DNA of 28,295 bases from a virus. A program made the position numbers and the translations under genes. Shown in pieces: positions 1,781 to 28,083 of the stretch (within the stretch, counting starts at the first letter, position 1; each line of letters begins with the position of its first letter). The notes under the pieces were generated by a model, which saw nothing but the letters and a program-made list of their open reading frames with translations, was not told where the DNA came from and made no database searches. The stretch covers positions 1-28,295 of the IMG/VR virus record IMGVR_UViG_3300019760_000011; one strand, 5' to 3'.

Positions 1781-4700
1781 TTATTCGTTCTCTATTGTAA
1801 CACTATGTATCTGCATTGGATAATTACTTGTCTGACTTCCATAATCATCTTCATGTCTAAAAATAATTAATTCACCAGCACTTTCATAAGCAGGCACTAA
1901 AATTTCAAATATCTGTTCCATCCATCCAAAGCTAATCTGCTTAGATTGAAAAGAACCATTAAAGCCAGAATTTAACTTTAAAGAAACACATAGCCTTGCA
2001 AAATCGTAAGTATCATCAGTTATTAATTGACTGTCAGTAGTCCAAGTATCATCAACACCTGTATAAATTAATGGGAACACCCTTGCAACAACCCTAACCT
2101 TTAACTTTTGATACCCCCCCGATTCAGTCCACGCAATATTTCTTTTAAGCACATGAGGAAAATTATCAGAATCCCACTCCAATCTTACATGCTGATTAAT
2201 GGCTGGGCTTGATGGATAATCTGTATAAGGTTCTGGTATGGCTTCTAAAGATCCCGTTGTAGTCCAATCTCCAAGCACATCAAACCCCTTCGTTGCATAA
2301 AGAGTATTTGATCTTAAAAGTGCATTGTACTTAGGAAGTTCTAGCGTTTTGTTAATGCCACCAATAACATCTAGTTTTGCATAACTAATTTCAGGGGCTA
2401 AAGTACTGTTTATAATAACAGACAACTTATCAAAATCCATCACCTCATACAGCTTTTCTACTTCAAAAGTTAATGCTCCGTTTGAGTAATTAAAAGGAAT
2501 TTCCCTTAGTTCGCCTGAAAATTTATTAGTGTAAAATTTAATTGGCTGCTGTGATATGTCTCGATAAGCATTTAAATAAGAGTAATTATCTACACCTTTA
2601 ACAATCGTGCCGCTTCCTAAGTCTGCTGAAAGTGTTGTGCCTGTAAAGAATAAATAATAACCGCTATCATTCTTTAATGAATAAGATTTCAATTTTCCAG
2701 CAAACGTTAAGGTTACGGCTGGTAGATTAGCATCTGTATATCCTGTCGTTCCAACTACATCTACAAACGAATTATAAACAGCCTCAGAAACCTCATAAGC
2801 TACATTATTTCTATAGTCAGATAAAGTGTAAGATTCATCAATAATACCCATAGAATCTTTAATATATACATTCTGAGGAGCTGTATCTGTCAATATGGTT
2901 ACAAGCCCTTTTCTAGCCTTTAATACGGAAGTGGTAAACTCAACCAAATATTTAAATGTCATAGGAATATGGAATTGTGTCATTAACATGCCGTACTCAT
3001 TATTAAAGTCATTAGATCCAGCATAACTTGTGCCAATTCTATCATACACAGTATCCCCATTGATTAAATATTGTTCGCCGTTACTTATTTCCTGCCAGTT
3101 TTCAGCACGTTGATAATTATTATTGAAATTTAATTCCGAAATAGGCTTGCTATTAGAGTTGCTTCTAAGTCTAAATATTTTTGTTGATTTGGTTGGTCTA
3201 GGCATTGTTTCAAAGAAGTTAGCCCATTGCAGAGTAGTCCAAGTGTTAGTTCTTGTTCCTGGATGCCCACCGTTCCAAAATTCTGCATAATCCTCTCTGT
3301 TTATAACCCTACCGTTTGAGCCAAAAGGAAAGTATGGAATGTTATTTTTTCTTGCATCTTCATGAAGTGTTACGTCATTCTCTGGTCTGTTGATCTTGTG
3401 ATCCGTTCCTAAAATTGGAAACATTCCGTAAGATTTAGCTGTATTAACCACCTCTTCAACCTCCCTGCTATAAAATAGATGGTCATTACCTCTCTGTGAA
3501 TTGATTCTCTCATTGGCAATCAGTGCAAGTATGCAATACTTTGGCGAAATTGCCTCTAGTGGAGCGTTACTCCAAAATGGATTTTCACCAAGTCTCATTC
3601 TCTCTATTATATCAACAAAGCTGTTCCCAGACTCGCCAAAGTTACAAAGTGGATAATCTATAAAGTTGGATAATTTTCTCATCCAACTTTTCCCAAAGAT
3701 GGCGTAAAATGATGCAGTGTAAGAGTTTCCATAGATAGCAATATAGTCTGAGTTCTGTATATTAACCTCTTTATCTTGCTCGTCATATTCTTCAAAACTA
3801 AGTATGTCAGTGTTTAATTGTCTTGTTGGTTTATCTATGTTGAAAGCGAAATATTTAGCACCAATTGGAGCTGTAAATTTAGATCCTTTTAATATAGAAA
3901 CATAAGTATTGGTGTCGGTTGCCACAAAAGTTTCTCCAATTGGATCGAAATTTTCATCAAAAAATCCACCAGCTTGATTATTACTAAGTGTTAATCCTTT
4001 TAGCACATAATCAACACCTTCTTTTATTTCCATAAATCCAGAAAAACTCCATCCAGACAATATAGTAACATTCTCTAATGATGAATATTTTTCGGATTCA
4101 GATTTGTGCGAACCAAAAGATATGACCTGATCTTGCTTAATGCCTTTGATTAGGTTTTTAGGTTTTGTTTTGATGAACTCTAGATAAGATTCTGGAATTA
4201 TTTTGCCAGCATAATCAACAATATCCGTAGATACTGCACCTTTTTCTAATTGAATTGTATTTAAATCAACCGTCTGAGATGTAGACTTAACAGAAAAAAC
4301 AAAATACTTATAACCTACTGGCATAGTAAAAGTATTATCGTTAATTCTTACGCCTACTTCTTCTGGATCTAATGTTTTGAAAACACCAGCAAAAAGTAAA
4401 TTAGAGTTAATTGTAAAGCCTTGTAAAGTATACTCTTCTCCTTCTTTCAATAAAATATAATCAGATCTATCAAAACCAACTAACGATTGAACATCTACAT
4501 CTTGACCACTAGCACTAACCAGCTCGCCAGACACTACCGAATCTTTATCGAAATAATTCAATCTATCGGCAATTATAGACTCCCCTAGTGATTTTAAATT
4601 CTCTCTTAGCTTAAATTCATCGAAGCTTTTTTTAACCCAAGTAGCCGACTCGTAAACAAAAACACAAAGTTCATTGTCTTTTTTTAAGCCTCCAAAATTA

Positions 4701-4924
4701 GAATAAATTCCATCTTCTAAAGGCAGTACTGTTGCATTCTCTTCCACTCCTACAATAACTGGACTACCAGGCACTATTGCACCATAATAATTAGAGCCTA
4801 TATTGGTTAAGTTATCTAAAATTAAATCTAACGAATCCCTTAAGTCCTCTGGGCTTATTTCATTATTATCGTTATCAGGAAGTAGATTCCCATAAAGTGT
4901 TTTAATATCGTCTATCAAGCTCAT
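1781..4924 (-). CDS. Large tail protein with SGNH/GDSL-type hydrolase domain (1047 aa)
   Basis: The N-terminal ~100 residues look like a virion attachment region (helical, then beta-rich). Two related beta-rich modules follow, about residues 143-229 and 281-381, sharing the patterns EYTLQG/DYVLKG and PVGYKYFVFSV/PIGAKYFAFNI. Next is an SGNH hydrolase domain: block I GNSYTAS (399-405, Ser401), block II GESGNS (430-435), a block III-like ANE (470-472) and a C-terminal GGHPGT with His554. The last ~400 residues are beta-rich and unassigned. SGNH domains on tail proteins generally remove acetyl or other ester groups from surface polysaccharide, so a receptor-modifying tail fibre or baseplate protein is inferred. 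It starts one base after the previous stop. The GGHPG motif in place of the usual DxxH is a mild deviation. Confidence 0.7.
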   Translation of the reverse strand: MSLIDDIKTLYGNLLPDNDNNEISPEDLRDSLDLILDNLTNIGSNYYGAIVPGSPVIVGVEENATVLPLEDGIYSNFGGLKKDNELCVFVYESATWVKKSFDEFKLRENLKSLGESIIADRLNYFDKDSVVSGELVSASGQDVDVQSLVGFDRSDYILLKEGEEYTLQGFTINSNLLFAGVFKTLDPEEVGVRINDNTFTMPVGYKYFVFSVKSTSQTVDLNTIQLEKGAVSTDIVDYAGKIIPESYLEFIKTKPKNLIKGIKQDQVISFGSHKSESEKYSSLENVTILSGWSFSGFMEIKEGVDYVLKGLTLSNNQAGGFFDENFDPIGETFVATDTNTYVSILKGSKFTAPIGAKYFAFNIDKPTRQLNTDILSFEEYDEQDKEVNIQNSDYIAIYGNSYTASFYAIFGKSWMRKLSNFIDYPLCNFGESGNSFVDIIERMRLGENPFWSNAPLEAISPKYCILALIANERINSQRGNDHLFYSREVEEVVNTAKSYGMFPILGTDHKINRPENDVTLHEDARKNNIPYFPFGSNGRVINREDYAEFWNGGHPGTRTNTWTTLQWANFFETMPRPTKSTKIFRLRSNSNSKPISELNFNNNYQRAENWQEISNGEQYLINGDTVYDRIGTSYAGSNDFNNEYGMLMTQFHIPMTFKYLVEFTTSVLKARKGLVTILTDTAPQNVYIKDSMGIIDESYTLSDYRNNVAYEVSEAVYNSFVDVVGTTGYTDANLPAVTLTFAGKLKSYSLKNDSGYYLFFTGTTLSADLGSGTIVKGVDNYSYLNAYRDISQQPIKFYTNKFSGELREIPFNYSNGALTFEVEKLYEVMDFDKLSVIINSTLAPEISYAKLDVIGGINKTLELPKYNALLRSNTLYATKGFDVLGDWTTTGSLEAIPEPYTDYPSSPAINQHVRLEWDSDNFPHVLKRNIAWTESGGYQKLKVRVVARVFPLIYTGVDDTWTTDSQLITDDTYDFARLCVSLKLNSGFNGSFQSKQISFGWMEQIFEILVPAYESAGELIIFRHEDDYGSQTSNYPMQIHSVTIENE

Positions 4925-4925
4925 A

Positions 4926-7205
4926 TTATTCGTATTTTTCTGTTATTGTAAAAATAGTATTAGTATTATAATTATCATCTCCGCTTTCTTTAGCTATAAT
5001 ATAATCAACGTACATTTCTCCAGTATTACCTGCAACCCTAGAGAAATAAACCTCTTTTATATCGCCGCTTGGAATTGTTATATTTAATATATTTTCGCCA
5101 GTTGTGAGAAGTGTTTTATGTATAGTGTCACTTAAATCCTTGTAAAAAAACTGCATTGTGCCGTTAGCGGTTATTAGATTGTATTTTATAGTTATATTAA
5201 TATCTACCGATGGAGTATTTGTCAGTGTCTGCATTAATTTATTATATATACTAGATGGTGCATGATAAGCTTCTCCAGAAACTATCGTCCAATATGTAGT
5301 ATCCCAACCGTCTAGATTATTACTAAACATTCCGTTTTTGATTAGGTTGTATGAGTTATCAAATCCACTATCGTAACCCCTATCAAATGCGCCAAGTGTA
5401 TTTTTATATTCGAAAACTTCAACCCATTCGGCATTATTTATTCTATCATTAACTAAATCCCAAGTTCCAGAATTAAGCATTAGTATTTTGCCCTGGTCTT
5501 TTATGTTCGTCCACACATCCCATTGCCAAAATAAAGACCCTGATATTTGTCTTGATACTTTATTATTTAAAAGATCATAACCCTCTGCGACCACCTGTAA
5601 TAGTGTTTTATTTGTCGAATCGCCTTTTCTGTGCCATCCTGTTAGTGCGCTTCCTGAAGAGTCGAATAAGCCGCCTAAAAAAATTATTTTAGAGTTATTT
5701 ACATTTGGAACTTCACCTATTGATAATCTAAATTCATCCTTAACGTTATTATTATCATCAATATCTCCTATTATAGTTTTCTCAGACGGATTACCCCCAA
5801 ATACAGTATCTAAAATAAGTTTAGCTTCTGCAAATTTTGTTGCTCCAACACCTACAGATGGATTACTAGCGAAAAATTTAATTTTAACATCTCCACTTAT
5901 AGGGAATCCATCAATAATAAGCTTTAAATCTGTTAATATATCTGTAGAAATTCCACTAAATTGTATTTCTCTTTCTTGAGAAGTATATGCGACCCACCCA
6001 CTATCCGTTAATATTCTAACATCTCCAGCTCCGTCGTCTATTAGTAAATCTACCTCTACCTTATCGCCTATACCTGCAAGCAAACTACTAGGGCAAGCCC
6101 TGAGACTTAAAGTTACTGCTAAGTCAGTTTGTTCTACAGGAATTACGGGAGGCTCTATCCAATCTTCTGAAACTACCACTTTCCTTATTATAAACTCACT
6201 TCCGCCATTAGATGTGGTTATGTAGTTTATATCTTTCATATCCCAACCGTTAATTGTGGCCGTGTTTGGCAATGGAGGATTGTCGTTAGTATATGTATAA
6301 TCTTCTTCTGTTTTTGGGAAATCATCAAATATAGTATCTACAGTTCCGTAATCTTGTATTAATTCAAAACTTTTCCAGGCTGGCTGTAATGCTAATCTAG
6401 CCGATTGATTCAGCCAATAAGTTTCATTAGGAACAACTGGAAAATTTAATCTATCCTGCATAAATCTAGGGAGAACATCATCAACGTCAATATTTGGAGC
6501 GTTATAATAACCCGCCTGTTCTCTTATTTCCCAAAACTCACCAACCTGTCTAATCTGAGCGCCGTAACCTTTTAATATTCGCTCCAAAACATCAAAACAT
6601 GATATAGGTTCATTATTTGTCACATTCCAAAATCCCGAAGTGTTTATGTATGTCTGCCCCCAATGATCAATATTTTCATCTTGACCGCTTGCGTATATAT
6701 CTATAAAATTATTGGTCAGCAGGGAGTTGCCAGTTTTGCCAAGCACAAAAGATAGTATCTGGGTTATTCTTTGTAAGCCTGTAATTCTATCGCCAGATGA
6801 ATCTACGTAGTCAATATCCTCAAGTCTTCCTAGGTTGTCTCGTGCCGTTAATTCTATTTCGTAATTTTCATAAAATGAATATGGCTCTTCGTAAGAGTCA
6901 GATTCAAGAAAGCCAGTAAAAACTAAATCAGAATCGTAATATACCTTAACTTGATACTTTCTGTCGTCAGAGGTAAATAAGTGTTCGAACTGTAAAGATC
7001 TTTCGCTTAACATCTTTAAAATGCAAGTCTTTTTCTTTATCGACTCTTCTCTTCCATCTCCTGATTTACTAATTGATATAAGAGGCTGTACCTTTATTTG
7101 AGAAGATGAACCAACGTAATCTCTTTCAAGGATCTCAACCCTTACAGCTTTTTCAAACCTCTGAGAGCTTGTAATATCATTATAATATATTAATCCAAAT
7201 GCCAT
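4926..7205 (-). CDS. Baseplate/tail-tip protein with C-terminal carbohydrate-binding-like domain (759 aa)
   Basis: Position directly after the tape measure gene and before the SGNH tail protein, with TAATG coupling to the tape measure stop, marks it as the distal-tail or hub-like protein. The N-terminal ~240 residues (FTGFLESDSYEEPY, ELTARDNLGRLEDIDY, CFDVLERILKGYGAQIRQ) resemble the tail protein that follows the tape measure in many Bacteroidota siphophages. The C-terminus from about residue 620 (NLIKNGMFSNNLDGWD) has the opening signature of a CBM4/9-like jelly roll and probably binds glycans. The precise structural role (distal tail, hub or fibre anchor) is inferred from gene order. Confidence 0.65.
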   Translation of the reverse strand: MAFGLIYYNDITSSQRFEKAVRVEILERDYVGSSSQIKVQPLISISKSGDGREESIKKKTCILKMLSERSLQFEHLFTSDDRKYQVKVYYDSDLVFTGFLESDSYEEPYSFYENYEIELTARDNLGRLEDIDYVDSSGDRITGLQRITQILSFVLGKTGNSLLTNNFIDIYASGQDENIDHWGQTYINTSGFWNVTNNEPISCFDVLERILKGYGAQIRQVGEFWEIREQAGYYNAPNIDVDDVLPRFMQDRLNFPVVPNETYWLNQSARLALQPAWKSFELIQDYGTVDTIFDDFPKTEEDYTYTNDNPPLPNTATINGWDMKDINYITTSNGGSEFIIRKVVVSEDWIEPPVIPVEQTDLAVTLSLRACPSSLLAGIGDKVEVDLLIDDGAGDVRILTDSGWVAYTSQEREIQFSGISTDILTDLKLIIDGFPISGDVKIKFFASNPSVGVGATKFAEAKLILDTVFGGNPSEKTIIGDIDDNNNVKDEFRLSIGEVPNVNNSKIIFLGGLFDSSGSALTGWHRKGDSTNKTLLQVVAEGYDLLNNKVSRQISGSLFWQWDVWTNIKDQGKILMLNSGTWDLVNDRINNAEWVEVFEYKNTLGAFDRGYDSGFDNSYNLIKNGMFSNNLDGWDTTYWTIVSGEAYHAPSSIYNKLMQTLTNTPSVDINITIKYNLITANGTMQFFYKDLSDTIHKTLLTTGENILNITIPSGDIKEVYFSRVAGNTGEMYVDYIIAKESGDDNYNTNTIFTITEKYE

Positions 7206-20186: not shown

Positions 20187-21404
20187 TCATAAGTCATTCG
20201 GATCAACCCAGAAATCAGAGGTATTGCCCATCATGTCGCCCAATGAGTAAGCATATCTACAGGCATCAATAGCGTGGTTCATCCAATCTTTAGGTTTGTT
20301 TATGAACTTACCGTTTTTGTCTTGCATCCATTGATAGTATCTGTTTTCTTTTATCAGGTTAGAGCTTTTCTTTGTGACAAGTATCTTGTGTCTCTTTAGA
20401 AAATCTATACCAGCCATAATAGAGCCTGGCTTCTTATCTGCACCTATTGCATTTATACCATATCGCTGAAGCTCTTCAATACTCTTAGGCTCTGCACTAT
20501 CACATATAACAATTTCCCCATTATAGCCATTAGAGTGGAAATAATCAGCTATTTCAGAGTTTATTAAGCCTGTCTGATACATGAACTCATCAAAATATAT
20601 CCTCCCATGCCCCTTTAAGGTTTTCACTATTGCCGTCGGGTCGTTCGAAAACCCAAAGTCTAAGGCGTACCAGCAACCGTCTATGTCTGGGAAATTATCT
20701 ATCTGCTCCCAAATAGGGAACACTCTACCGTCCGTTATTCCTCCCCAATCACCTAGCGCATATATTTTATAGTAGTTTTTATCTATGTGTTTATACGACT
20801 CTAAAACCTTTTTATACTCTTCATCAATAAACTTATTGTTTAGGTATGTGGTTTTAATGATGGTGGTTTTCTCTCTAATCTCTGGCGTGTCAAAGAAATG
20901 CTTTTTAATCCAATGCTCTTCATCTATTGGGTTGAATGTTATAGTCATTTGAAGGTCGTCGCGCCCCCTAAGTCTCAAGTTAAGTTGATTAAAGTCAGAA
21001 TGTGCCAACTCGCTAGCCTCTTCAATCCATATTCGCGTAATACCAGCAATTGATTTTATTTTTTCAGGATCATCCATACCCTTGAATAGTATTTGAGATC
21101 CATTTGCGAAAGTTATGAACTGAGTTGCTTTATTCTCCTCGTAGTATGGGGTCAAGCCCCATCCATCAAGAATAGACTTAAATAGAGCTATTACTGAATC
21201 TTTTAGTGTCGTTCCAACCTTACGTATAACTAAAAGCTTTTCTTTCTTCTGTAAGCATCTTATTATCTCGTATTGTGTTTGTGAGAATGACTTGCTAGAC
21301 CCTGCGCCACCATAAGATACAACAAAACGGGAAGAAGCGTTCTGCAACTTCCCGATTAACGGATTAAATAAATCCTCTTGGTGTTTTGAAAAATCAATCA
21401 GCAT
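20187..21404 (-). CDS. terL: Terminase large subunit (405 aa)
   Basis: ATPase-nuclease that packages DNA. Walker A: YGGAGSSKS (31-39). Walker B: RIWIEEAS (124-131) with the catalytic glutamates. The C-terminal RNase H-like nuclease shows the acidic triad: D249 in YALDFGFSNDP, D302 in ICDSAEPKSI, and D380 in NHAIDACRY. This pattern is that of the Terminase_3/PBSX-like family. It overlaps the small terminase by 11 bases. The motif set is complete, so the enzyme should be functional. Confidence 0.93.
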   Translation of the reverse strand: MLIDFSKHQEDLFNPLIGKLQNASSRFVVSYGGAGSSKSFSQTQYEIIRCLQKKEKLLVIRKVGTTLKDSVIALFKSILDGWGLTPYYEENKATQFITFANGSQILFKGMDDPEKIKSIAGITRIWIEEASELAHSDFNQLNLRLRGRDDLQMTITFNPIDEEHWIKKHFFDTPEIREKTTIIKTTYLNNKFIDEEYKKVLESYKHIDKNYYKIYALGDWGGITDGRVFPIWEQIDNFPDIDGCWYALDFGFSNDPTAIVKTLKGHGRIYFDEFMYQTGLINSEIADYFHSNGYNGEIVICDSAEPKSIEELQRYGINAIGADKKPGSIMAGIDFLKRHKILVTKKSSNLIKENRYYQWMQDKNGKFINKPKDWMNHAIDACRYAYSLGDMMGNTSDFWVDPNDL

Positions 21405-21813
21405 CGAACTTTGGAGGCTTAATTATCAGGTTCATTTGCCCAGTCTGTTCTACTTCTTGCTTATCTTTCCACCCCATATTTTTAAGTGCAAAAATTGCAC
21501 CCGTAGCGCCATTATGAGATAATCTTTTTTCATATCCATTTTCAACTCTTAACAGTGCTTTTTTTATGGTGTAAGCAAACTCTTCCTTTCCTTTGTAATC
21601 ATAAATACTTTGCCTAGAAGCAAAGCCAAGTGCCAAAGCCAAGCCTGTAATGGTAGGAGTGCCAAAATCAATAATATTTCCTTCCTCAACAATTGGCTTG
21701 CAAGTGCCAAAGTAATCAATTATCTTCTGCTCTAACTCATCTACATTATCCCACATTGCTGGTCTTCCTCCTTCATTCCCCAATGCAAATTTATTCCCTT
21801 TCGGCGCTCCCAT
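21394..21813 (-). CDS. terS: Terminase small subunit, gp3-like (139 aa)
   Basis: DNA-recognition subunit. It starts with MGAPKGNKFALGNEGGRP, the hallmark of the gp3-type DNA-packaging family, followed by a helix-turn-helix-like region (ITGLALALGFASRQSIYDYKG), an oligomerisation helix (AYTIKKALLRVENGYEKRL) and the ALKNMGWKDKQE motif before an acidic tail. It heads the packaging-head operon; a TATCTTTA element lies 20 bases upstream of its ATG. Confidence 0.85.
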   Translation of the reverse strand: MGAPKGNKFALGNEGGRPAMWDNVDELEQKIIDYFGTCKPIVEEGNIIDFGTPTITGLALALGFASRQSIYDYKGKEEFAYTIKKALLRVENGYEKRLSHNGATGAIFALKNMGWKDKQEVEQTGQMNLIIKPPKFDAD

Positions 21814-25011: not shown

Positions 25012-25044
25012 CAAAGATAGTGTAAATTATCTTCTAATCCCAAA
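25012..25044 (-). promoter_or_regulatory. Consensus promoter overlapping the 3' end of the RNA ligase gene
   Basis: Minus strand TTTG (25044-25041), 21-base spacer, TATCTTTG (25019-25012). A complete match to the Bacteroidota consensus, pointing away from the ligase gene into the gap. Confidence 0.65.
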
Positions 25045-25629
25045 ATCAGACTTTCTAATTTTACACATTCTTCCATCGGTTATGTGATGAAACACAATTC
25101 CCTCTATATCTCTAGTGTTTAGATAAGCTTTCAGTTCGTCAAATCCAAAATCATCAACCATACACTTTTCTCCGCCGTGCCTTATTAATTTGTGGCAGTC
25201 TAATCTTTCGGGATTACCCTGTACTTTAGGACCGCAAAGCTCGTAAGTTCCATCGTATCTATTAGGATCAAAATTATCTGTAATAATATTTTTCATTAAT
25301 GAGTCGAAAGCCTCGAAATGATATTTGTTTGATTTGTCAGATCTTTCACATTTAATCCAATGTGGGTGATGTCCGCTTAACCTGTCTGCATCTTGACATG
25401 GGATCGCTCCAGTTGGAATGGGCTTTTTATATTCTCCAGTCTCTTTGTTTATCTTGCAGTCGTATCTCTTATATAGTTCACCGTTAATAATAGCGCATGA
25501 TGTTCCATCAAATTTTCTTGTTGGTAACGCAAATCCACCGTAAACCCATTCATTTTCTGGATTAACTTCGTTTATTACTCGACCTAAATTATTAGGATCT
25601 TTTTTAAATAATGTACTAATCTTTTTCAT
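25027..25629 (-). CDS. RLIG1-like (C12orf29/DUF5565) RNA ligase (200 aa)
   Basis: Nucleotidyltransferase-fold ligase that would seal 5'-phosphate/3'-hydroxyl RNA ends through ligase-AMP. Motif I is RKFDGTS with Lys39 as AMP acceptor; then LYKRYDCK; IPCQDADRLSGHHPHW; HFEAFD (104-109, motif III-like); YELCGPKVQGNP (129-140); IEGIVFHH (175-182, motif IV); and MCKIRKSDFG with Lys190 (motif V). The series GxxxNGNP/EGIVxH/KIxxxxxG parallels the vertebrate RLIG1 family. I chose ATG 25629 because of its AAATAAAAGATATG leader; the frame reaches 25707, adding a hydrophobic 26-residue start that could be a membrane anchor. Likely role: repair of tRNA or other RNA cut by host defence nucleases (inference). 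Confidence 0.75.
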   Translation of the reverse strand: MKKISTLFKKDPNNLGRVINEVNPENEWVYGGFALPTRKFDGTSCAIINGELYKRYDCKINKETGEYKKPIPTGAIPCQDADRLSGHHPHWIKCERSDKSNKYHFEAFDSLMKNIITDNFDPNRYDGTYELCGPKVQGNPERLDCHKLIRHGGEKCMVDDFGFDELKAYLNTRDIEGIVFHHITDGRMCKIRKSDFGIRR

Positions 25630-25693: not shown

Positions 25694-26008
25694 TTAAGTA
25701 GTTTCATTTAATTCACATGCTTTAAACAATCCAGCCTCCAGAGCTTCTTCGTACGAATCAAACTCTATTTTAGTTTGACTATACGCAAAAGCAAATGGCT
25801 TCTTTGGGTTTGATTCTAAAATGTACTCAAAGCAATCTAGGTCATAATTACACTCTATTGTAACTATTATATTTTTCTGTTCTCTAAACCACATTTTAGC
25901 TAATTCCAAGGCTGGAGCTTTCATACCGTAAAAATCATTGACTTTTGCATTAAAGCCAACTTCTTTAAGTTTTTTAGCTAATTCTAATGATACTAATTGT
26001 AATTTCAT
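25694..26008 (-). CDS. Hypothetical protein of a Bacteroidota-phage family (104 aa)
   Basis: The layout SLELAKKLKEVGFNAK, then APALELAKMWFREQKNIIVTIE, and C-terminal SYEEALEAGLFKACELN is shared by a group of small uncharacterised proteins in Bacteroidota phages. No catalytic residues evident. Leader AAACTAAAAATAAATAATATG. Its end runs into the possible longer N-terminus of the ligase gene. Confidence 0.65.
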   Translation of the reverse strand: MKLQLVSLELAKKLKEVGFNAKVNDFYGMKAPALELAKMWFREQKNIIVTIECNYDLDCFEYILESNPKKPFAFAYSQTKIEFDSYEEALEAGLFKACELNETT

Positions 26009-26975: not shown

Positions 26976-27407
26976 TTATTCAAAATACTGAAACACATCA
27001 ATAATTTTACTTTCAGAAATTGAAGGTATTTCAAACGGAACAATCATATCAGATAAGCACTCAGTTAAAAAAGAATATGCTTCATCTACATTATTAGATT
27101 CTACCAACATATAATTATTTGTTTTCTTTTCTTTACCGCTTGTTTCATCGATATCAACAAATGAAACTTTAGCTTTAAACCAACGATCACCGTTTTCATT
27201 AGGGTAAATCTCAGAAATATTTGATTCTTTACCTGATATCACTTTAAACTCGCCAGAAACTACTTGTTCCAACTCTTTAACCATTCTACTTTCCATTTCA
27301 GTCAATGACATTGCATCTACTAAATATGTTTCTGTTACATTTTTCTCTTTACCTGATTGCTCGTCAATCTTAGTGTACTTTGCTTTTGCTTCGAAATAGT
27401 TTTTCAT
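26976..27407 (-). CDS. DUF4494-family protein (143 aa)
   Basis: Two related halves: KAKYTKIDEQSGKEKNVTETYLVDA and KVSFVDIDETSGKEKKTNNYMLVE (given here by their cores). The pattern (Y/F)xxxDExSGKEK...(Y/M)LVxA, GEFKVISGKESNISEIYP and the C-terminal DVFQYF is that of DUF4494, frequent next to SSB in Bacteroidota phages and plasmids. The function is not established; context suggests replication or recombination. It starts with an A-rich leader. Confidence 0.8.
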   Translation of the reverse strand: MKNYFEAKAKYTKIDEQSGKEKNVTETYLVDAMSLTEMESRMVKELEQVVSGEFKVISGKESNISEIYPNENGDRWFKAKVSFVDIDETSGKEKKTNNYMLVESNNVDEAYSFLTECLSDMIVPFEIPSISESKIIDVFQYFE

Positions 27408-27425: not shown

Positions 27426-27731
27426 TTAATGTTTAATATTTGGATCAGAATAATAAGCCTTTTTAAGCTCTTGTTTTTTATCCTGAAATACTTCGTACTG
27501 TTCTTGGTTTTCGTGTTCCTCTGGAGTGCCTAAAAGGATATTGTCAGGGTTTAATTTGTAAGCTGGATATGCACCTTTAGATAATACGTGAAGGAATTGA
27601 AAATGCCATTTAGGATGATTGATATGGTAGAGCTGATTGTCAGTCAGCTCCGATTTATATCCATTTGCCTCTCCTCTTGTGTTCCATATATACAGGAACA
27701 TTTCTTTTTGATTCTTAAAAAGCTGGCTCAT
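27426..27731 (-). CDS. HNH-like small protein next to SSB (101 aa)
   Basis: The segment LHVLSKGAYPAYKLNPDNILLGTPEEH has the H48...N64...H73 spacing of HNH proteins, with SKG and 'NIxLG' as in related phage proteins. The zinc-binding CxxC pairs of classic HNH enzymes are absent, so nuclease activity is doubtful. I use ATG 27731, which overlaps the SSB gene end by 17 bases; an upstream ATG at 27752 would overlap it more. Common partner of phage SSB genes. Confidence 0.65.
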   Translation of the reverse strand: MSQLFKNQKEMFLYIWNTRGEANGYKSELTDNQLYHINHPKWHFQFLHVLSKGAYPAYKLNPDNILLGTPEEHENQEQYEVFQDKKQELKKAYYSDPNIKH

Positions 27732-28083
27732 CCTCTTGTTTTTTACTTCCAATCATCTGTAAAGTATCACCAAAGCCATTTAAAACTATTTCAGTAATAT
27801 ACTTTTTATCGCCGTTTTGATCTTCCCAATATCTTGTTTTAATCTTACCCTCAACGTAAAGCTCTTGACCTTTTTTTACGTAAGATTCTACAATTTCAGC
27901 AAGCTTGCCAAATACAGCTATATTATGCCATTCGGTTTGCTCTTTCTTTTCTCCTGTATTTTTATCCTTCCAAGTTTCTGAAGTAGCCAAAGAAAAATTA
28001 GCTACTTTATTCCCATTATCAAAATCTCTGATCTCTGGATCTTTTCCAACTCTTCCTAATAGGATTGCCTTATTTACGCTCAT
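27715..28083 (-). CDS. ssb: Single-stranded DNA-binding protein (122 aa)
   Basis: Complete OB-fold SSB: MSVNKAILLGRVGKDPEIR start, NKVANFSLATSETW, TEWHNIAVFGKLAEIVESYV with the conserved WHNI/V and GK, QELYVEGKIKTRYWED, and an acidic C-terminal tip (EDEPAF) comparable with the DDDIPF of bacterial SSBs that recruits partner proteins. The linker is very short. It covers ssDNA during phage replication or recombination. Confidence 0.93.
   Translation of the reverse strand: MSVNKAILLGRVGKDPEIRDFDNGNKVANFSLATSETWKDKNTGEKKEQTEWHNIAVFGKLAEIVESYVKKGQELYVEGKIKTRYWEDQNGDKKYITEIVLNGFGDTLQMIGSKKQEDEPAF

What the first reader, a model, noticed from the sequence alone, without database searches (positions are those of the whole stretch)
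25027..25629. Phage-encoded RLIG1-like RNA ligase
Seen: the nucleotidyltransferase motif I KFDGTS, YELCGPKVQGNP, IEGIVFHH and CKIRK in order in a 200-residue protein. Known: RLIG1 (C12orf29) is the vertebrate 5'-3' RNA ligase family (DUF5565). Inference: the phage uses it to repair RNA cut by host anticodon nucleases, or to process its own small RNAs. Related ligases in Bacteroidota phages appear little studied.
Basis: partly seen in the sequence, partly recalled or inferred. Interest (0 to 1): 0.72.

Follow-up and report, generated by a model that had tools for sequence, protein, structure and literature searches.

The report
Phage RLIG1-type RNA ligase
A phage of Bacteroidota bacteria carries a small but apparently complete RNA-joining enzyme of the same family as the human enzyme RLIG1, most likely to mend tRNAs that the bacterium cuts to stop infection; its nearest bacterial relatives sit in chromosomal RNA-repair islands beside arrays of extra tRNA genes.

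Summary
Window 25030-25629 (minus strand, 200 codons) is an intact gene. Its protein belongs to the RLIG1 (C12orf29) RNA ligase family by Pfam profile (at the cut-off alone, but all 45 relatives match), by PDB sequence search, by predicted fold (Yasminevirus RLIG1 Z 18.4; next ligase Z 9.2), and by the seven catalytic residues shown by mutation to matter in Yasminevirus RLIG1. It is not novel in kind: PHROG 14301 and many phage records already say 'RNA ligase', and a 2024 PNAS paper cloned bacterial and phage RLIG1 homologs, showed tRNA-half ligation by several, and proposed the anti-immunity role. Two points are added here. First, most phages with this ligase have no detectable polynucleotide kinase, so the likeliest direct substrates are cuts that already carry 5'-phosphate and 3'-OH, such as those made by the PARIS nuclease AriB, rather than PrrC ends. 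Second, the closest chromosomal relatives (Chryseobacterium, Flavobacterium) sit in RNA-repair islands (Rnl2, cREC, RNase T, Band-7, TROVE) with tRNA genes nearby in 24 of 25 loci. Substrate and role in infection are inferred. New member of a known kind.

The parts
25030..25629 (-). RLIG1-type ATP-dependent 5'-3' RNA ligase, 200 aa (stop codon 25027-25029)
   Evidence: Pfam RLIG1 25.0 bits at cut-off 25 for the 200-aa form; PHROG 14301; PDB 9c6l; fold Z 18.4
25504..25515 (-). motif I KFDG: K39 (AMP-accepting lysine, = Ysp K73), D41 (= Ysp D75)
   Evidence: invariant in 45 aligned relatives; aligned with Ysp
25465..25467 (-). motif Ia R55 (= Ysp R89)
   Evidence: invariant, aligned
25240..25242 (-). 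motif III E130 in YELCGPK (= Ysp E174)
   Evidence: invariant, aligned
25177..25179 (-). motif IIIa H151 (= Ysp H195)
   Evidence: invariant, aligned
25102..25104 (-). motif IV E176 in IEGIVFHH (= Ysp E240)
   Evidence: invariant, aligned
25060..25062 (-). motif V K190 in CKIRK (= Ysp K253)
   Evidence: invariant, aligned
20187..21813 (-). terminase large and small subunit genes downstream of the ligase, the same order as ligase and terminase in Cellulophaga phage phi10:1; phage context
   Evidence: PHROG terminase matches; phi10:1 order
27715..28083 (-). single-stranded DNA-binding protein, phage context
   Evidence: Pfam SSB E 2.6e-38, PHROG 44

Best explanation
The gene encodes a minimal, catalytic-domain-only ATP-dependent RNA ligase of the RLIG1 family. 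By homology it forms a lysine-AMP adduct at K39, transfers AMP to an RNA 5'-phosphate and seals it to a 3'-OH. Family membership and an intact catalytic set are shown here; the chemistry is established for family members in the literature. In infection it most likely reseals tRNAs nicked in or near the anticodon loop by host defence nucleases, keeping translation going (inferred). Because the window and most related phages carry no detectable polynucleotide kinase/phosphatase, the primary damage is probably cuts that already carry 5'-P and 3'-OH ends, for example those left by two-metal nucleases such as AriB of PARIS; other ends would need host healing enzymes (inferred).
For: Sequence family. 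Fold: AlphaFold2 model pLDDT 93.6, best match Yasminevirus RLIG1, Z 18.4, 2.4 A over 182 residues; next Naegleria RNA ligase Z 9.2 and T4 Rnl1 Z 8.2. Catalytic residues K39, D41, R55, E130, H151, E176, K190 invariant in 45 relatives and aligned with Ysp K73, D75, R89, E174, H195, E240, K253, whose mutation reduced adenylation and ligation (PMC11494293). The same paper shows that several homologs ligate tRNA-Lys halves with 5'-P/3'-OH and that a 'C. phage RLIG1' was among the clones. Chromosomal relatives: 24 of 25 loci have tRNA genes nearby, in islands with Rnl2 ligase, cREC, RNase T, phosphoesterase, Band-7 and TROVE. No kinase: AAA_33 over cut-off in only 2 of 28 virus records and no match in the window; HAD_PNKP in 1 of 22 virus records, the 433-kb one. 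AriB leaves 5'-P/3'-OH tRNA ends (PMC12409363).
Against: No activity has been measured for this protein. Only 6 of 33 phage loci have tRNA genes nearby and the window has none, so the genomic tie to tRNA comes from chromosomal relatives, not from the phages. The window is a 28-kb fragment and most related records may be fragments, so a kinase could lie outside them; AAA_33 and HAD_PNKP do not cover every healing enzyme. No defence system that this phage faces has been identified.
Confidence: 0.72

Rival explanations
1. It works as the sealing step of a T4-like heal-and-seal pathway against PrrC/RloC-type anticodon nucleases, with kinase and phosphatase supplied by the host or by unrecognised phage genes.
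For: T4 precedent and the prediction for viral RLIG1 (PMC11494293); the 433-kb relative G017 has AAA_33 and HAD_PNKP matches side by side in open frames of the same length (323 aa); the Flavobacterium and Chryseobacterium genomes searched have AAA_33 genes.
Against: Complete genomes of phi10:1, Collard and NTR1 have no AAA_33 match and 26 of 28 virus records lack one over cut-off; cREC is in only 1 of 19 virus records.
Confidence: 0.3
2. It processes or circularises the phage's own small RNAs or mRNA, or repairs rRNA, rather than tRNA.
For: Human RLIG1 is reported to be required for 28S rRNA integrity under oxidative stress (PMC13244148 abstract); the enzyme has no separate tRNA-binding domain.
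Against: Rfam found no known RNA in the window. Chromosomal relatives sit near tRNA arrays.
Confidence: 0.12
3. It is a DNA ligase or capping-type nucleotidyltransferase.
For: These share the catalytic fold; DNA ligases appear lower in the fold list.
Against: No Pfam match to DNA ligase or capping families at E<=0.1; DNA ligases score Z 6.8 or less against 18.4 for RLIG1.
Confidence: 0.03

Closest known systems
RLIG1 / C12orf29 family (PF17720), especially Yasminevirus RLIG1 (PDB 9c6l, 9c6m)
   Same: Fold, all seven catalytic residues, lack of an added RNA-binding domain
   Different: 200 aa against 277 aa for the Yasminevirus crystal chain; about 29% identity over structurally aligned residues; phage of Bacteroidota
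PHROG 14301 'RNA ligase'; Cellulophaga phage phi10:1 gp57; Mycobacterium phage RNA ligases (Collard gp74 and others)
   Same: Same family over the full length; 55% (phi10:1) and 43% (Collard) identical; already annotated as RNA ligase
   Different: The window protein has two insertions not shared by most relatives (about residues 64-70 and 115-121)
T4 Rnl1 with Pnkp tRNA repair
   Same: Same catalytic core fold and proposed purpose, sealing cut tRNA
   Different: No C-terminal RNA-binding domain; different family; no detectable partner kinase in most carriers
Bacterial RNA-repair gene clusters with Rnl2, cREC, Band-7, TROVE (cREC, TROVE and RNA repair discussed in PMC7824862)
   Same: Chromosomal relatives of this ligase are components of such clusters
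   Different: In the phage the ligase stands apart from other recognisable repair genes, near the terminase genes

Membership tests
RLIG1 / C12orf29 (PF17720) | Significant match to the curated family profile | tested here: met
   25.0 bits at gathering score 25 for the 200-aa form; 45 of 45 relatives match, best E 8e-13. Borderline alone: 24.4 bits for the 226-aa form
RLIG1 / C12orf29 (PF17720) | Catalytic residues of motifs I, Ia, III, IIIa, IV, V as in Yasminevirus RLIG1 | tested here: met
   All seven invariant in 45 relatives and aligned (residue list from PMC11494293)
RLIG1 / C12orf29 (PF17720) | Predicted fold closest to RLIG1 among ligases | tested here: met
   Z 18.4 against 9.2 for the next ligase
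RLIG1 / C12orf29 (PF17720) | Auto-AMPylation on the motif I lysine and 5'-P/3'-OH RNA ligation | not testable with these tools
   Needs purified protein
T4 Rnl1 / Rnl2 families | Match to Rnl1 or Rnl2 profiles | tested here: not met
   No Pfam match other than RLIG1 at E<=0.1
T4-like heal-and-seal pathway | Partner polynucleotide kinase/phosphatase in the same phage | tested here: inconclusive
   None in the window or in complete phi10:1, Collard, NTR1, present in the 433-kb relative; the window is a fragment
ATP-dependent DNA ligase | DNA ligase profile match | tested here: not met
   No match at E<=0.1

The most novel reading that the evidence does not exclude
Phage RLIG1-type ligases are kinase-free sealers specialised for 5'-P/3'-OH tRNA cuts, and a phage copy was captured by Flavobacteriales chromosomes into RNA-repair islands that also keep an array of divergent duplicate tRNAs, giving a two-part host system of spare tRNAs plus repair.
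Probability: 0.25. Interest if true: 0.68.

Novelty: new member of a known kind. Interest (0 to 1): 0.42.

Why it matters
It adds a group of phages of Bacteroidota to the family of a recently discovered human RNA ligase, with a 180-200 residue form that looks catalytically complete, and makes a testable claim: which host tRNA cuts a ligase can reverse without healing enzymes. Its chromosomal relatives link the family to tRNA arrays, a genomic setting that speaks for tRNA as the natural substrate.

Tried and rejected
DNA ligase or capping enzyme: rejected on profile and fold. Longer 226-aa start: not supported by relatives. Non-coding RNA at the locus: none in Rfam, no tRNA in the window. NCBIfam and PADLOC: no match for the ligase or the island proteins tested. 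Direction of transfer between phage and chromosome: chromosomal copies are nested among phages in the best tree, but holding the phages together is not rejected (p-AU 0.08) and the chromosomal group has only 63/75 support, so direction is left open. Burroughs and Aravind 2016 on RNA repair systems, recalled from memory, could not be read, so whether the tRNA-array islands were already described is unverified. The identity of 'C. phage' in PMC11494293 is not given in its main text and its supplement could not be read; the text says 'several homologs' were active without naming the phage one. Absence of other families from the fold lists is not taken as evidence.

Full report
Observation. The gene is real, intact and on the minus strand: 200 residues from the methionine at 25629, with the stop codon at 25027-25029. 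A longer start at 25707 exists, but relatives begin at the 25629 methionine.

Identity. Pfam gives RLIG1 as the only family at E<=0.1 (24.4 bits for the long form; 25.0 bits, exactly at the cut-off, for the 200-aa form). All 45 aligned relatives match RLIG1 and no other ligase family. PHROG 14301, annotated RNA ligase, matches at E 9.8e-65. The only PDB sequence matches are the two Yasminevirus RLIG1 entries (E 5.3e-11; with the family profile E 5.1e-21). An AlphaFold2 model from 33 sequences has mean pLDDT 93.6; Foldseek ranks the Yasminevirus chains first at E 1e-12 with the next ligase at E 0.04, and VIA-align gives Z 18.4 over 182 residues against 9.2 for Naegleria RNA ligase, 8.2 for T4 Rnl1 and 6.8 or less for DNA ligases.

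Active site. The PNAS 2024 study (PMC11494293) lists the Yasminevirus residues that act in adenylation and ligation: K73, D75, R89, E174, H195, E240, K253. They align with K39, D41, R55, E130, H151, E176 and K190 of the window protein, and these seven are invariant in 45 relatives. Activity is therefore expected but not measured.

Context. The window is a 28,295-base virus record with terminase, portal, major head protein, head protease and head morphogenesis genes, and SSB. The ligase lies upstream of the terminase genes on the same strand, as in Cellulophaga phage phi10:1. There are no tRNAs in the window.

Relatives. 39 viral contigs and 20 phage records carry it, including Cellulophaga, Mycobacterium, Burkholderia and Nocardia phages. 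In bacterial genome contigs 26 loci were found, mostly Chryseobacterium; 28 of 118 Chryseobacterium genomes have it, against 84 of 118 for the neighbouring Rnl2 ligase, so it is an optional part of a wider island. In 395 Bacteroidota-level genomes 8 had a match.

Chromosomal islands. In Chryseobacterium the gene follows an Rnl2-type ligase and lies among a cREC domain protein, two ATP-grasp proteins, an RNase H-like protein, a metallo-beta-lactamase protein, a calcineurin-like phosphoesterase, RNase T-type exonucleases, a Band-7 protein and a TROVE protein, downstream of a tRNA array. A second group of chromosomes, with ligases close to that of Flavobacterium pectinovorum, has Band-7, phosphoesterase, RNase T and ATP-grasp genes around the ligase in varying combinations and tRNAs in all but one. 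tRNA genes occur near the ligase in 24 of 25 chromosomal loci but in 6 of 33 phage loci. In Chryseobacterium sp. ZHDP1, which has 88 tRNA matches, the 14 array tRNAs repeat anticodons that also exist elsewhere in the genome but are only about 50-68% identical to the best such copy.

Tree. The window protein pairs with L002 (91/95) inside a Bacteroidota phage group; the two chromosomal groups fall among phages. Direction of transfer is not established.

Mechanism. RLIG1 enzymes join 5'-P to 3'-OH (PMC11494293). PrrC-type cuts need kinase and phosphatase first. AAA_33 kinase genes over cut-off were found in 2 of 28 virus records, none in the window, none in complete phi10:1, Collard or NTR1; HAD_PNKP only in the 433-kb relative. 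AriB of PARIS leaves 5'-P/3'-OH tRNA ends (PMC12409363). The best inference is a stand-alone sealer for such cuts. The link to AriB is chemical plausibility, not evidence that these phages meet PARIS.

Novelty. The family, its viral members, their activity class and the counter-immunity idea are published. Added here are the kinase-poor pattern across carriers and the tie of the closest chromosomal relatives to tRNA arrays in RNA-repair islands; whether the latter was described earlier could not be checked.

Noticed in passing
L068 (Chryseobacterium sp. ZHDP1) 2762-5541 and L124; also L049-L070: Arrays of up to 16 tRNA genes upstream of the RLIG1-like gene in Chryseobacterium; in ZHDP1 the array tRNAs repeat anticodons present elsewhere in the genome but are only about 50-68% identical to the best such copy.
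   Followed up: partly
L093 (ZHDP1 3942700-3944600): A second, odder tRNA-like array about 15 kb upstream of the first, with genes whose anticodon ARAGORN could not assign to an amino acid.
   Followed up: no
L046 9563-9634: A tRNA-like gene with a four-base anticodon call (aata) just upstream of the ligase in Flavobacterium pectinovorum; Rfam scores it as tRNA, 50.3 bits.
   Followed up: no
window 1781-4924: 1047-aa protein in the structural gene region with a YGNSYT stretch that resembles SGNH-type esterases by eye; not searched.
   Followed up: no
window 26976-27407: DUF4494 protein (Pfam E 1.5e-44), function unknown, two genes from SSB.
   Followed up: no
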